Assembly (NCBI GenBank): GCA_036504095.1
Contig: DASXVS010000080.1
Location: 186,001-250,000 of the forward strand
DNA length: 64,000 nt
Origin: Armatimonadota bacterium
GTDB taxonomy: Bacteria; Armatimonadota; DTGP01; JAKQQT01
Reading direction: 5' to 3'
Position numbers and translations under genes: made by a program. Shown here in pieces: positions 35,237 to 40,701 of the stretch. Each line of letters begins with the position of its first letter. The stretch's first letter is position 1. The notes beneath the pieces are model-generated. The model had not been told where the DNA came from. It did no database searches and saw only the letters and a program-made list of their open reading frames with translations.

Positions 35237-35794
35237 ATGATCTTCGAGCCAGTCAGACCCAGTGTCCCCGACACATCCGTGTCCGAGCCCGCCGGGAATC
35301 CCGAAGCGAATGCGGATTTTGTCAGCCGCCATCAATGGAGCGCCGAACGGCCGTCCGCGCTGGTCATCGCGTGTTCCGACGGCCGCATGCGCGCGCATCT
35401 GGACGATTTTCTCAACAACCATCTCGGCATCAACGCCTACGACAGGCTGTACGTTCCCGGCGGACCGGGGGGCCTGGCCGGCGGCGCCGCAGAGTTTTCC
35501 CGTGCGGCGCAGATGGTGAGCGAATGCCAGTTCCTGGTGAAATCCCACGGAACCAGCGAAGTCATCCTCATCTTCCACGGTGCGGCGCCGGACGGGCCGG
35601 ACGAGGCTGTTTGCGCCGATTATTCCCGCAAACACTCAGATCGCGCTCGCGTGCCGCAAATGCAGGATACGGACCTGAAAGAGTTGCTCCGCACCGCCTT
35701 CTCCGGGCCGGATGCCCCAAAGGTGCGGGCCTTCAATGCCAACGTGACGGCCGCCGGAAAGGTCCTGTTCACGCGCCTGGATTGTGGCCGGTAA
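35237..35794 (+). CDS. Beta-carbonic-anhydrase-like protein lacking one zinc cysteine
   Basis: About 185 residues with AGGAGG before the ATG. LVIACSDGRMRAHLDDFL holds the beta-class CxDxR motif (Cys 46, Asp 48, Arg 50), followed by LYVPGGPGGL in the usual R-N-A-G position. The second zinc site, normally GHxxCG, reads FHGAAPDG: the His is present (114) but the Cys is replaced by Ala. Normal CO2 hydration is therefore doubtful, and a relative with another role is possible. It is preceded by the envelope glycan genes and followed by HtrA. Confidence 0.7.
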   Translation: MIFEPVRPSVPDTSVSEPAGNPEANADFVSRHQWSAERPSALVIACSDGRMRAHLDDFLNNHLGINAYDRLYVPGGPGGLAGGAAEFSRAAQMVSECQFLVKSHGTSEVILIFHGAAPDGPDEAVCADYSRKHSDRARVPQMQDTDLKELLRTAFSGPDAPKVRAFNANVTAAGKVLFTRLDCGR

Positions 35795-35958
35795 ACCGCC
35801 CGCCTGCACGCAAGCACAATAGCGGTTTCCCCTTCACCCGCTATGCTCAATTTGGGAACCAAACGGGCCCGATATACGACTTATACTGTGGACGGGATGC
35901 CTCGGCTCGCCGGGGTACCCGCCCCTCGCAACATATGACATCTGGAGGTAGATCCGAA

Positions 35959-37581
35959 ATGCACAAACAAGATGGGTTCTGGCAGAAGCCTTCCAACACA
36001 GTTTTGATGGTTATCAGTGTTTTGGCTTTGGGTTTCTCGCTCGTGGCGCTTTTCCGCCGTGACGCGATCGAAACCGCCTCGGCGCAGCAGGCGGCTGCAA
36101 CCACCGGCAAGCAGCGCGTCGCCCTGGGCGTCCTGCAGGACGGTTTCGTGGGAATCGCCGATGCGGTGGAGCCGAGCGTGGTGAGCATCGAGGCGACGAC
36201 GAGGCCGGATGCCAACGCCACCCCCGATTCCGGCGACAACGGGGACAACAGCGCCCCGTTCCAACTCCCGGACCCGTTCGGGTTTTTCCGAAACTCGCCT
36301 AATCAGCCCTCCCCCCAGCCGCAGCCCCGAATGGGCATCAGCACCGGCAGCGGCGTTATCGTGCGCGTGGACGGCAACACCTGCTACGTGCTGACAAACC
36401 TCCATGTGGTGGATGGCGCCAGCAAGATCCAGGTCATCCTGGCCGGCAAGGACGGCGAGAAGGTAGACGGCAAGGTCGTCGGTTCCGATGACAAGACCGA
36501 CCTCGCGTTGATCAGCATGGCGACGCCGGCGGGCGTTACACGGGCCAATATCCCCAAGCTGGCGGACTCCAATAAGGTGAAGGTCGGCCAGTGGGCCATC
36601 GCCATCGGCAACCCGCTGGGCGTTGGCGAAACGCTGACGGTGGGCGTCATCAGCGCCACCGGGCGCGAATTGTCCGGCGTGGAAGGGTTCAAAGATTATC
36701 GCGACATGATCCAGACGGACGCCAGCATCAACCCCGGAAACTCCGGCGGACCGCTGGTGGACATCAACGGTGACGTGATCGGCATCAACACGGCCATCGC
36801 CAGCCCGAACCGCGGCGGCGTGGGCATCGGCTTCGCCATTCCAATCAACGTGGCCAAGAGCATTCTGGATCAGTTGATCTCCAAGGGCAGCGTAACGCGC
36901 GGCTACCTGGGCGTCGCTGTGAGCCAGATGAACCGCAAGCTCAGCCCTGAACTGAAGAAGTATTACGGCGTTGAGTATGGCGCGCTTGTGGAACAGGTGA
37001 ACGACAACACCCCCGCCGCCAAGGCAGGCGTTAAGCCCGAGGACGTCATCACCTCCTGGAACGGTCAGAAGATCGCGGACTTCGACGACCTTGAGGCCGC
37101 CGTTACGTCCACGCCTCCCGGTCGCCAGGTGGATCTGGTGGTCGTGCGCGGCGGCAAGCAGGTCACGCTTAAGGTGACGACCGAGAAGCGCAAGTCGGAA
37201 GAGGAACTGGCCAAGGACATCAACGGCGCGCCGTCGCCCGGCGCCGCGGATCAGCCCGGCAAGGAGACCAAACTCGCCACGCTCGGCATGTCCGTAAGCT
37301 CATTGTCCCCGCAGGACGCGCAGCGCCTCGGCCTGGACGCGGCCATCAAGGGCGTGCTCGTCACGAAGTGGGACCTCAGCGGTCCCGCCTACGAAGCGGG
37401 CATCCCTCCGGGCAGCGTGATCCTTCGCGTCGGACGCACTCCCACGCCGACGGTTTCGGCCCTGATGGCCGCCATCAAGAACGTGAAGCCGGGCGAAGCG
37501 ATCATCATGCAGGTGAACGCGCCCAGCGCCAGCGGCGGACGCAGCACCGGCATCCGGACGATCAAGCCCGAAGCGAAGTGA
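35959..37581 (+). CDS. HtrA/DegP-type trypsin-like serine protease with two PDZ domains
   Basis: About 540 residues with GGAGG upstream. A single membrane anchor (SNTVLMVISVLALGFSLVALF) places the protease outside the membrane. The triad is His in TNLHVV, Asp in DDKTDLALI and Ser in NPGNSGGPL. The first PDZ spans about residues 310-405 (RGYLGVAVSQMNRKLS), the second about 440-535. It degrades or refolds damaged envelope proteins. A GGAACC-N16-CGAC sequence about 100 bases upstream is compatible with control by an ECF sigma factor, but weakly. Confidence 0.92.
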   Translation: MHKQDGFWQKPSNTVLMVISVLALGFSLVALFRRDAIETASAQQAAATTGKQRVALGVLQDGFVGIADAVEPSVVSIEATTRPDANATPDSGDNGDNSAPFQLPDPFGFFRNSPNQPSPQPQPRMGISTGSGVIVRVDGNTCYVLTNLHVVDGASKIQVILAGKDGEKVDGKVVGSDDKTDLALISMATPAGVTRANIPKLADSNKVKVGQWAIAIGNPLGVGETLTVGVISATGRELSGVEGFKDYRDMIQTDASINPGNSGGPLVDINGDVIGINTAIASPNRGGVGIGFAIPINVAKSILDQLISKGSVTRGYLGVAVSQMNRKLSPELKKYYGVEYGALVEQVNDNTPAAKAGVKPEDVITSWNGQKIADFDDLEAAVTSTPPGRQVDLVVVRGGKQVTLKVTTEKRKSEEELAKDINGAPSPGAADQPGKETKLATLGMSVSSLSPQDAQRLGLDAAIKGVLVTKWDLSGPAYEAGIPPGSVILRVGRTPTPTVSALMAAIKNVKPGEAIIMQVNAPSASGGRSTGIRTIKPEAK

Positions 37582-37640: not shown

Positions 37641-37680
37641 GGGAAGCGGTCCGGAAACGGGCCGCTTCCCTTCTTTATTT
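37641..37680 (+). terminator. Intrinsic terminator after the HtrA gene
   Basis: A 12-bp stem (GGGAAGCGGTCC with one G-T pair) and a six-base loop, followed by TTCTTTATTT. Confidence 0.9.
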
Positions 37681-37814
37681 GGGGGAGCGGCGCAAACGTC
37701 ACAACCGATCAGGCATTCATATTAACACCGGGGATGGGTCATCGTGATACATCAGAATGGACTACAATCACGTCAGATTGATTAGCGTTCTTTCTTTGAG
37801 CGAGGAGGAATTGA

Positions 37815-38627
37815 TCCAGCGGCCAGTACGTGGAGGACGAAATCCTTTACGACGCCTTCGGAAACGTGGTGATGCGCGACCTCTCCACGGTCGGCGACTA
37901 CACCGTTCCCACCCCCACCCCGTTCCTCTGGGGCGGCAGCCACCAGTACCAGGCGGACTACGAGAGCGGTCTAATGCTGCTGGGCAACCGCTACTACGAT
38001 CCTGCCATCGGCCGGTTCATTAGTCAGGACCCGGCGCAAGACGAGAGCAACTGGTATTCGTATTGCGGCAACAACCCGCTGGTCGCGGTGGACCCGAGCG
38101 GGCTGACTGAGAAAAAGGATCAAACGGCTTTGATTGTGATTGCCGATACCAAGGTTGGCAAGATGCAAGGTGCAAACGACCGTGCTGTCCAGAATCTCGC
38201 CAAGACGGCGGCTGGCTATTATGATGCCGAAGGATATGGCTCAGTCAAGATTCGTACAAACCCCACGGAGAAGCAGGTAGACCTCGCCTTGGCGGACAAG
38301 TCCGTGAACGCGCTCACATGGATTGGCCACGAAGCCTTCCCTGGCGCTGTCTCTGTCAACCCCGGGAAAGGTGGAAAAGGCAGCGATGGCATGCGCGGAG
38401 CCGATTTCGAGAGGGCATTGAGCGGACGGAAACTCGATGAGGCTCGATTCTTCGCTTGTCATTCAAATCACAACTACGAACTCCGGGACGGAATAGTTGG
38501 CCCCGGCGGCCACTGGACGGGGGCTGACGGATTCTACCAGCCTGTCACCGGAATAAACTCGAGCATCCGCGGCCTCAAAACGCTGTATGAGTACGAACGC
38601 GAGCGTGCAATTATGAACGGCTGGTAG
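37815..38627 (+). pseudogene. Orphan Rhs C-terminal tip with caspase-like toxin domain
   Basis: The frame opens just after a stop and has only a GTG (37830) as possible start, without a suitably placed ribosome site, so this looks like the displaced end of a full Rhs protein. Counting from that GTG, residues 1-92 are the end of the Rhs core (YDAFGNVV, GLMLLGNRYYDPAIGRFISQDP, then NPLVAVDPSGL). Residues 95-265 are the variable tip: a strand (ALIVIAD), a helix, a strand (SVKIRT), ALTWIGHEAF with His 167 and ARFFACHSN with Cys 210. This order suits a caspase/CHAT/C80-like cysteine peptidase. The fold call is inference. It ends nine bases before a small membrane protein gene. Confidence 0.7.
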
Positions 38628-38636
38628 GGGGATTCT

Positions 38637-38789
38637 ATGCGCAGTTCACATCCCAATGGGTCAAGCGACGTTCGCCAATTCATGCGAGGTGTCTTTCTCT
38701 TTGTATTGTGCCTTGTGATTGTACTGGTTATTGGCGTGCTCCTCACAGTGGCGCTTTCAATCGTGCAGCACCCGTTACGCCATATGTAG
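38637..38789 (+). CDS. 50-residue single-span membrane protein, candidate immunity partner
   Basis: A short gene placed nine bases after the Rhs tip, with TAGGGGGA just before the ATG. A polar N-terminus of 18 residues (MRSSHPNGSSDVRQFMRG) leads to one hydrophobic helix (VFLFVLCLVIVLVIGVLLTV) and a short tail. Rhs toxin tips are almost always followed by a specific immunity gene, and this is the only candidate here. Its small size and lack of known family make the role an inference. Confidence 0.55.
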   Translation: MRSSHPNGSSDVRQFMRGVFLFVLCLVIVLVIGVLLTVALSIVQHPLRHM

Positions 38790-38855
38790 CCAACCAGGCA
38801 GACGAGTGCCCGACAAGCCCAGGACAACCGGCAAATATGACCGAGTCAGGCTTAC

Positions 38856-38972
38856 CTGCTTGGCAACCGCTACTACGATCCCGCCATCGGCCGGTTCATC
38901 AGCCAGGACCCGGCGCAGGACGAAAGCAACTGGTACGCCTACTGCGGCAACAACCCGCTGGTAGCGGTGGAC
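38856..38972 (+). pseudogene. Rhs core relic
   Basis: Encodes LLGNRYYDPAIGRFISQDPA and onwards to NPLVAVD in one frame. It is about 91 percent identical in DNA to 37977-38093, with almost all differences at synonymous positions and one changed residue (Ser to Ala). The frame then runs out of homology, with no tip domain. It is the remains of another Rhs end left by recombination. Confidence 0.8.
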
Positions 38973-39049
38973 TCCTATCCCCATCCCCCATCCCCCAACG
39001 TCCCTTGCCCTCCTCGCCGCCTCGCGCCATACTTAGGCTTAACTAGGTT

Positions 39050-39099: not shown

Positions 39100-40701
39100 A
39101 TGCAGGTTATGGGCAGATTTCAGAGCAGGGTGGGACTCGAGGCCCACGGTATCCAGAACGTTCAGTCGGTGTATTGGAACCTTTCAACTTCTCTCCTCTA
39201 TGAAGAGGCCATCCGCCGGCGGGAGGGGCGCCTCGCCCATCTGGGGCCGCTGGTGGTCCGCACCGGCACTCACACGGGCCGCGCACCCAACGACAAGTTC
39301 ATCGTGAAGGAGCCGTCCAGCGAGAACGCCGTCGCATGGGGCAAGGTTAACAAGCCGATGGACCCCGCCAATTTCGAGCGCCTCAAGGGCCGCATGCTGG
39401 CCTATCTCCAGGGCAAGGACCTCTTCGTGCAGGACTGCTTCGCCGGCGCCGATCCGCGCTACCGGCTTCCCATCCGCGTCATCACGGAGACCGCCTGGCA
39501 CAGCCTCTTTGCGCGCAACATGTTCATTCAGGCGCAGCCGGAGGAACTTGTCGATCACGAACCGCAGTTCACGGTCATCAACGCCCCCAATTTCCACGCG
39601 ATTCCGGAGGTCGACGGCACCCGCAGCGAAGTGTTCGTAGTCATTAATTTCGGCCAGCGGCTCATCCTCATCGGCGGTTCCGAGTACGCCGGTGAGATTA
39701 AGAAATCCATCTTCACGCTGCTGAATTTCCTGCTGCCGCAGAAGGACGTCCTGTCCATGCACTGCTCGGCCAATATCGGAACCGGCGGAGACGTAACGAT
39801 CTTCTTCGGCCTCTCCGGCACCGGCAAAACGACCCTCAGCGCCGACCCCGAACGCCAGCTCATCGGCGATGACGAGCACGGCTGGAGTGACCACGGCGTC
39901 TTCAATTTCGAGGGCGGCTGCTACGCCAAGGTGATCCGCCTGTCCGCCGAGAGCGAACCGCAGATTTACCAGACCACGCGCCGCTTCGGCACGGTCCTGG
40001 AGAACGTGGGCTTCGACAGCGACACGGGGCGCCTCAACCTGGATGACGACAGCCTCACGGAGAACACCCGCGCCGCGTACCCCCTCACCCACATCCCGAA
40101 TATCAAACGCGACGGCCTCGGACCGCACCCCACCAACATCATCATGCTCACCGCCGATGCGTTCGGCGTTCTGCCCCCCGTGGCCCGGCTGACCCCCGAG
40201 CAGGCGATGTACCACTTCCTCAGCGGATACACAGCCAAAGTCGCCGGCACCGAGAAGGGCGTTACGGAGCCGCAGGCCACCTTCAGCACGTGCTTCGGCG
40301 CGCCGTTCATGGTCCTCGACCCGACTGTCTATGCGCGGCTCCTGGGTGAACGGATCAAAAAGCACAACGCGAACGTCTGGCTCATCAACACTGGCTGGAC
40401 GGGCGGCCCGTACGGCACCGGCAAACGGTTCCGCATCGAGCACACCCGCGCGATGGTGCGTTCGGCGCTCGACGGAAGCCTCGCCGAGGCGCCGACCGCC
40501 AGGGACCCGTTCTTCGGCCTGAATGTCCCGACAGCATGTCCCAACGTACCGCCGGAGGTTCTCAACCCGCGCAACACCTGGGCGGACCGCGATGCCTACG
40601 ACGCTCAGGCGCGCAAACTCGCCGGGATGTTCGTCGATAACTTCAAGTCGTTTGAGAGCGAGACCACGCCCGAGGTGAAAGCAGCCGGCCCGCAGGGCTA
40701 A
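39100..40701 (+). CDS. pckA: Phosphoenolpyruvate carboxykinase (ATP)
   Basis: A 533-residue enzyme that turns oxaloacetate and ATP into PEP, the entry to gluconeogenesis. It has the substrate loop RTGTHTGRAPNDKFIV, the P-loop FFGLSGTGKTTLS, the metal-binding LIGDDEHGW and the late NTGWTGGPYGTGKRF adenine-binding stretch. Length is normal. GGGAGG stands before the ATG. It has its own terminator. Confidence 0.96.
   Translation: MQVMGRFQSRVGLEAHGIQNVQSVYWNLSTSLLYEEAIRRREGRLAHLGPLVVRTGTHTGRAPNDKFIVKEPSSENAVAWGKVNKPMDPANFERLKGRMLAYLQGKDLFVQDCFAGADPRYRLPIRVITETAWHSLFARNMFIQAQPEELVDHEPQFTVINAPNFHAIPEVDGTRSEVFVVINFGQRLILIGGSEYAGEIKKSIFTLLNFLLPQKDVLSMHCSANIGTGGDVTIFFGLSGTGKTTLSADPERQLIGDDEHGWSDHGVFNFEGGCYAKVIRLSAESEPQIYQTTRRFGTVLENVGFDSDTGRLNLDDDSLTENTRAAYPLTHIPNIKRDGLGPHPTNIIMLTADAFGVLPPVARLTPEQAMYHFLSGYTAKVAGTEKGVTEPQATFSTCFGAPFMVLDPTVYARLLGERIKKHNANVWLINTGWTGGPYGTGKRFRIEHTRAMVRSALDGSLAEAPTARDPFFGLNVPTACPNVPPEVLNPRNTWADRDAYDAQARKLAGMFVDNFKSFESETTPEVKAAGPQG

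What the first reader, a model, noticed from the sequence alone, without database searches (positions are those of the whole stretch)
38637..38789. A 50-residue membrane protein as candidate immunity factor
It sits nine bases after the Rhs tip with a good ribosome site and is one polar segment plus one transmembrane helix. Immunity proteins against cytoplasmic toxins are normally larger and soluble. A single-span partner would suit a toxin acting at the membrane or during entry.
Basis: partly seen in the sequence, partly recalled or inferred. Interest (0 to 1): 0.58.

Follow-up and report, generated by a model that had tools for sequence, protein, structure and literature searches.

The report
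Anchor-only partner of caspase-like toxin
The small gene sits in the immunity slot behind a stranded toxin tip that resembles a caspase protease; related tips nearly always have a membrane-anchored partner in that slot, and this one appears to keep only the anchor.

Summary
The 50-codon frame is real, starts nine bases after the tip stop, and has one very hydrophobic segment. Its length alone is not significant (20% of shuffles); its hydrophobicity is (0 of 20,000). The "Rhs protein" is an orphan cassette: a short Rhs core cap, one tip, this frame, then a second core remnant. The tip looks caspase-like (clan CD): strands ending in GH and AC, with its Cys falling on the catalytic Cys of caspases in structural alignments (model of moderate quality). 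Fourteen Rhs-linked relatives were found in the phylum. In 13 of 14 the next gene encodes a protein with an N-terminal hydrophobic anchor or lipobox, against 13 of 40 other Rhs tips (p = 9e-5). Twelve of those 13 add 79 or more residues after the anchor; one is membrane-only. The window's protein has 14 and no sequence relative. Best reading: the immunity-slot gene of a protease toxin that acts outside the cytoplasm. Whether this copy is a minimal working immunity protein or a truncated leftover is undecided.

The parts
37641..38104 (+). 464-nt leader plus core block shared at about 95% identity with contig C51, where it precedes a different tip; begins with a terminator-like hairpin (37641-37670)
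   Evidence: blastn; hairpin
37848..38105 (+). end of the Rhs core (RHS repeat-associated core domain); no Rhs repeats or secretion part upstream; only in-frame start is GTG 37830
   Evidence: TIGR03696; sequence
38106..38627 (+). tip: caspase-like (clan CD) domain, His77 (codon 38328-38330) and Cys120 (codon 38457-38459) of P0003
38626..38632 (+). AGGGGGA, probable ribosome site of the small frame, overlapping the tip stop
   Evidence: sequence
38637..38789 (+). 50-residue single-span protein in the immunity slot (P0001); 14 residues after the hydrophobic segment
38856..38972 (+). remnant of a second Rhs core end (91% identical to 37977-38093), marking the 3' edge of the cassette; no tip follows it
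   Evidence: one search places the core match at 38844-38975

Best explanation
The frame is the immunity-slot gene of an orphan Rhs toxin cassette. Inferred working: once fused to a delivery-competent Rhs shell, the tip is a caspase-like cysteine protease that cuts a substrate on the outer side of the inner membrane or in the periplasm. Its partner protects by being anchored in the inner membrane with an inhibitory domain on that side. The window's copy keeps the cytoplasmic tail and the anchor but not the domain. Shown by computation: cassette anatomy, the H/C pattern and fold, and the anchored partners of relatives. Inferred: protease activity, site of action, and immunity.
For: Orphan cassette: core cap only, second core remnant 66 nt after the small frame, same leader-core block with another tip at C51, 19 core places in the genome. 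Caspase-like tip: AlphaFold core blocks pLDDT 76-85; Foldseek top rows are caspases (E 3e-3); VIA-align Z 8.0-8.8, with untrimmed caspase rows ending at model residue 120 against residues 163, 186, 285, 258 and 254 of caspase-3, -7, -1, -4 and -11 (catalytic status from entry titles for caspase-1, -4, -11 and from recall for -3 and -7). The relative L058 independently gives SAVED-CHAT as its four best rows. Weak clan-CD Pfam hits in different relatives: CHAT 0.008, C14 0.04, C50 0.046, C13 0.24. GH in 14 of 15 Rhs-linked tips and the Cys in 15 of 15. Partner: 13 of 14 anchored vs 13 of 40 controls, Fisher p 9.3e-5; 5 of 5 in the set found after the idea was formed.
Against: The models are of moderate quality (mean pLDDT 54-55; two-sequence alignments; no Foldseek E under 1e-3). 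Window tip: no Pfam match; relatives stay below Pfam cut-offs. The 50-residue protein has no ectodomain and no sequence relative. Own-genome partners of other tips are often hydrophobic too (6 of 14), so membrane character alone is not specific. Partner groups are not demonstrably homologous to each other (hhalign probability 1.4%).
Confidence: 0.62

Rival explanations
1. Truncated leftover: the cassette once carried an anchored partner with an ectodomain; recombination at the core remnant and loss of constraint in a silent orphan left only the 5' part. The 50-residue protein no longer protects.
For: 12 of 13 anchored partners of relatives keep 79 or more residues after the anchor, the window 14; the core remnant begins 66 nt after the stop; the toxin frame lacks a proper start and delivery part; relatives also show decay: L058 has no partner, L052 has a TGA in its partner and lacks the His.
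Against: The frame ends in cassette-unique DNA, before the core junction; one relative (L071) also has a membrane-only partner of 84 residues; the toxin frame itself is intact with both catalytic residues.
Confidence: 0.45
2. Minimal working immunity protein: a single span that binds the tip, its substrate or its entry route within the membrane, with no ectodomain needed.
For: Position, spacing and hydrophobicity; membrane-only partner in L071; small membrane immunity proteins are known for other toxins (CdzI, three predicted TM, PMC5380434, passages).
Against: No conservation of the sequence; a protease inhibitor is hard to build from 14 exposed residues.
Confidence: 0.35
3. Chance frame in the gap between tip and core remnant.
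For: A frame of this length in this gap arises in 4,018 of 20,000 shuffles; codon use is not host-like.
Against: 0 of 20,000 shuffles are as hydrophobic; it matches the position and anchor type of relatives' partners.
Confidence: 0.15
4. The caspase-like domain is a self-cleaving release peptidase, not the toxin.
For: Most caspase-like domains in polymorphic toxins are releasing peptidases (PMC3482391, passages).
Against: Here it is the C-terminal-most domain with nothing to release and a partner gene behind it; the same paper lists such C-terminal versions as likely toxins.
Confidence: 0.1
5. Membrane-inserting toxin neutralised by a single-span partner.
For: Partner is membrane-embedded.
Against: No hydrophobic span in any tip; conserved H/C and caspase-like fold.
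Confidence: 0.04

Closest known systems
Orphan Rhs toxin/immunity modules (Poole 2011 PMC3150448, one passage read; Koskiniemi 2014 PMC3967940, abstract read)
   Same: Core fragment, tip and immunity gene without start or export signals
   Different: Here at a locus without a main rhs gene, with a leader-core block shared between two contigs; no near-identical intact Rhs core found in the assembly
Tox-Caspase class of polymorphic toxins (Zhang 2012 PMC3482391, passages and the first of two parts of the immunity section read)
   Same: Caspase-like fold with H and C, C-terminal position, Rhs carriers
   Different: Listed partners are Imm36 and Imm57; here partners are anchored or lipoproteins, without an Imm match in Pfam for the four scanned
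CHAT / SAVED-CHAT proteases
   Same: Best structural rows for the relative L058; weak CHAT match in L040; the profile reaches CHAT-looking proteins
   Different: No SAVED or NB-ARC part; delivered as an Rhs tip; Pfam cut-off not reached
[quoted passage not shown]
   Same: Immunity held at the membrane, matching where the toxin acts
   Different: Other toxins; the window protein has one span and no lipobox

Membership tests
Orphan Rhs toxin/immunity cassette | Rhs core end fused to a variable tip | tested here: met
   TIGR03696 over residues 7-92 then the tip
Orphan Rhs toxin/immunity cassette | Lacks repeats, proper start and export part | tested here: met
   Frame opens just upstream of GTG 37830; no repeats above it
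Orphan Rhs toxin/immunity cassette | Core remnant downstream | tested here: met
   38856-38972, 91% to 37977-38093
Orphan Rhs toxin/immunity cassette | Can recombine with a main rhs gene | tested here: inconclusive
   DNA search found no near-identical intact Rhs core in 80 contigs; draft assembly
Orphan Rhs toxin/immunity cassette | Downstream gene gives specific immunity | not testable with these tools
   Needs co-expression
Tox-Caspase / clan CD peptidase | Catalytic His and Cys after two core strands | tested here: met
   H77 and C120; GH in 14 of 15 and C in 15 of 15 Rhs-linked tips
Tox-Caspase / clan CD peptidase | Caspase-like alpha/beta fold | tested here: met
   Model of moderate quality
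Tox-Caspase / clan CD peptidase | Cysteine protease activity | not testable with these tools
   Needs assay
Pfam CHAT PF12770 or Peptidase_C14 PF00656 | Pfam gathering score | tested here: not met
   Window tip no match; L040 16.1 vs 24 and 14.0 vs 21.4 bits
Anchored partners of this tip family | N-terminal hydrophobic anchor, next gene after tip | tested here: met
   Residues 18-36, +9 nt
Anchored partners of this tip family | Ectodomain of about 80 residues or more (12 of 13 relatives) | tested here: not met
   14 residues after the segment
Imm-CdiI / Imm17 two-TM immunity | Two TM helices | tested here: not met
   One hydrophobic segment
Imm65-type lipoprotein immunity | Lipobox | tested here: not met
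   No lipobox in P0001 by eye

The most novel reading that the evidence does not exclude
A clade of Rhs tips in this phylum is a caspase-fold protease that works outside the cytoplasm and is regularly paired with a membrane-tethered inhibitor; in the window the inhibitor has been pared down to a 50-residue single-span protein that still protects, acting inside the membrane, for example by blocking the tip's entry or holding it away from its substrate.
Probability: 0.2. Interest if true: 0.7.

Novelty: new variant of a known kind. Interest (0 to 1): 0.47.

Why it matters
Caspase-like polymorphic toxins are known, and the 2012 survey lists Imm36 and Imm57 as their immunity families, in a collection where all but a few immunity proteins are cytoplasmic. 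A clade whose partners are consistently tethered at the membrane would mean caspase-fold toxins that work in the envelope, and would give a set of candidate membrane-bound caspase inhibitors. The 50-residue copy makes a sharp test of how little an immunity protein can be.

Tried and rejected
Single-protein searches with the tip found nothing in plasmids, phages, viral contigs, genome contigs or PDB sequences; weak matches in 40 close relatives were judged chance on inspection. Pfam Cortexin, DUF3040 and Baculo_11_kDa matches to the small protein are below cut-off. Weak matches of the small protein in other genomes: of the four read, three are in frames with a type IV pilin-type N-terminus and one in a long unrelated frame; three more had no locus and were not read. 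A pseudopilin origin of the partners was tried: PDB pilin rows at E 1.3-1.4 only, so a lead, not a result. The PDB row for the L040 partner (E 0.89) is chance. Partner groups A6 and A9 are not detectably homologous. A first attempt at the control with motif patterns found no rows or only part of the loci and was replaced by one using match positions. Longest-frame partner picking chose wrong-frame ORFs for the window and L064 and anchored ones for 7 of 10 family rows; the control on that rule was 13 of 37; the Fisher figure printed used 7 of 9 and gave p 0.026. The rule counts any qualifying frame and was applied alike to both sets. Its form was chosen after the first eight relatives were seen; the five later ones are the fair test. 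Rows dropped before counting: controls L023, L028, L098, L101 (tip under 50 residues) and L103 (runs off), 45 examined, 40 kept; L039 left out as near-copy of L040; eight standalone caspase-like hits left out as not Rhs-linked.

Full report
What is there. The frame 38637-38789 is exactly as described: 50 residues, nine bases after the tip stop, one hydrophobic segment at residues 18-36 with a mean hydropathy of 3.38. A frame of that length in that gap is not rare: 4,018 of 20,000 shuffles have one. One this hydrophobic is: 0 of 20,000, and 336 reach the usual threshold of 1.6. Codon usage neither proves nor excludes translation.

The 'Rhs protein' is a fragment. Upstream of the tip there is only the end of the Rhs core (TIGR03696, E 1.8e-18, residues 7-92 of the 265-residue frame). 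No repeats or export part lie above it; the only in-frame start is GTG 37830. A second core remnant lies at 38856-38972, with no tip behind it. The block 37641-38104, from a terminator-like hairpin to the last codons of the core, is about 95% identical to a block on contig C51, where it leads into a different tip that matches Peptidase_M91 above its cut-off and is followed by a 172-residue protein with an N-terminal hydrophobic segment. The genome has 19 core places, ten of them on one stretch of contig C42. This is the anatomy of orphan Rhs toxin/immunity modules (PMC3150448, one passage; PMC3967940, abstract).

What the tip is. It has a strand-GH and a strand-AC pattern (H77, C120). Profile searches of 291 genomes of the same phylum, repeated with growing alignments, found relatives that also lie behind Rhs cores: L040 (near-copy L039), L041 (the same locus as L058, bacterium HR15), L052, L053, L064, L079, L065, L070, L071, and later L123, L124, L125, L126, L129. 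L053, L070 and L129 lie in open frames of 1467, 1352 and 1444 residues. For L041 and L129 the core is degraded or not in the lines shown, so their Rhs context rests on a short core-like stretch and on frame length. GH is present in 14 of the 15 tips counting the window (not L052) and the Cys in all 15. The profile also reached proteins that look like CHAT proteases (L067, L072, L078; named by eye). Relatives give weak clan-CD Pfam matches, all below cut-off: CHAT and C14 for L040, C50 for L070, C13 for L123. The window tip itself has none. A model of the window tip from a two-row alignment has mean pLDDT 54 with a better core (blocks at 76-85). Foldseek's best PDB rows are caspases (E 3e-3). 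VIA-align gives Z 8.0-8.8 for caspase chains, and the untrimmed caspase rows end at model residue 120 against residues 163, 186, 285, 258 and 254 of caspase-3, -7, -1, -4 and -11. These are catalytic cysteines: entry titles C285A, C258A and C254A say so for three; for caspase-3 and -7 it is recall. Z near 8 alone can be a common arrangement, as the tool warns; two lumazine synthase rows and a mutase row score about the same. The model of the relative L058 gives SAVED-CHAT as its top four rows, with caspases and some unrelated alpha/beta folds below. I read this as a caspase-like domain with fair confidence.

What the partners are. In relatives the next gene encodes: a 265-residue anchored protein (L040, +23 nt), an anchored protein with an internal TGA (L052), anchored proteins of 110, 114 and 105 residues (L053, L064, L079), proteins with lipobox-like LSGC and LVGC ends (L065, L070, by eye), an 84-residue membrane-only protein (L071), and anchored proteins of 135, 100, 119, 136 and 214 residues (L123, L124, L125, L126, L129). 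L058 has no partner frame; a transposase-like remnant lies behind it (by eye). One mechanical rule applied to both sets: 13 of 14 family tips (window not counted) have a downstream frame with an N-terminal hydrophobic segment, against 13 of 40 other Rhs tips (6 of 14 in the window's genome, 7 of 26 elsewhere); Fisher one-sided p 9.3e-5. The five relatives found after the idea was formed are 5 of 5. Sequence similarity among partners is low; two groups could not be joined by profile comparison, so this is a shared type, not a proven family. Eight further members of the profile are standalone proteins, mostly about 150 residues, without Rhs; one of the eight (L120) has a LemA-like anchored neighbour, the others no anchored partner.

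How it most likely works. Immunity proteins are usually found where the toxin acts. The 2012 survey says all but few are cytoplasmic globular proteins, lists Imm36 and Imm57 for caspase-type toxins, calls Imm65 the only lipoprotein in its collection, and notes secreted or TM immunity proteins for a cell-surface peptidase (PMC3482391, passages and the first part of the immunity section). A consistent anchor on the partners of this clade therefore suggests a protease acting on the outer face of the inner membrane or in the periplasm, with a tethered inhibitor. The window's protein has the slot, the spacing and the anchor, but only 14 residues after it, against 79 or more in 12 of 13 relatives. 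It is either a minimal immunity protein or what is left of one in a silent cassette. I slightly favour the leftover. Its frame ends in cassette-specific DNA 66 nt before the core remnant, so it was not cut by that junction directly.

Verdict. In the library searched, no paper held Armatimonadetes, Rhs and toxin together; that phylum name is my recall for HR15, whose NCBI lineage is only 'unclassified Bacteria'. Searches for caspase-like, CHAT and interbacterial toxin terms (listings only, apart from the papers named) showed no title on a caspase-like Rhs tip with anchored immunity; this is a limited search.

Noticed in passing
G000 contig C42:39500-56000 (L011): Array of ten Rhs core ends in about 12 kb on one strand, most with different tips and partner genes behind them; several partners are hydrophobic.
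   Followed up: partly
G000 contig C51 (L009:1270-2965, minus): Same leader-core block as the window in front of a Peptidase_M91-type tip with an anchored 172-residue partner, then another core remnant with a third tip and a two-segment 89-residue partner.
   Followed up: partly
L119, L120, L121, L122, L127, L128, L130, L132: Standalone caspase-like proteins related to the tip, outside Rhs context; L119 has a stop inside the match.
   Followed up: partly
window 37641-37670; start of the shared block on C51 (L009:2965); C26:1378-1407: A 30-nt terminator-like hairpin at three places next to Rhs remnants in this genome.
   Followed up: partly
L052 (G085:C136): Tip lacks the catalytic His and its partner frame has an in-frame TGA: looks like a decaying pair.
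   Followed up: no
phylum of G000: Rhs core ends are very common: 117 of 151 genomes searched have at least one.
   Followed up: no
window 35335-37581 and 39100-40701: Flanking genes read by eye as an HtrA-like serine protease and a phosphoenolpyruvate carboxykinase; not tested by any search.
   Followed up: no
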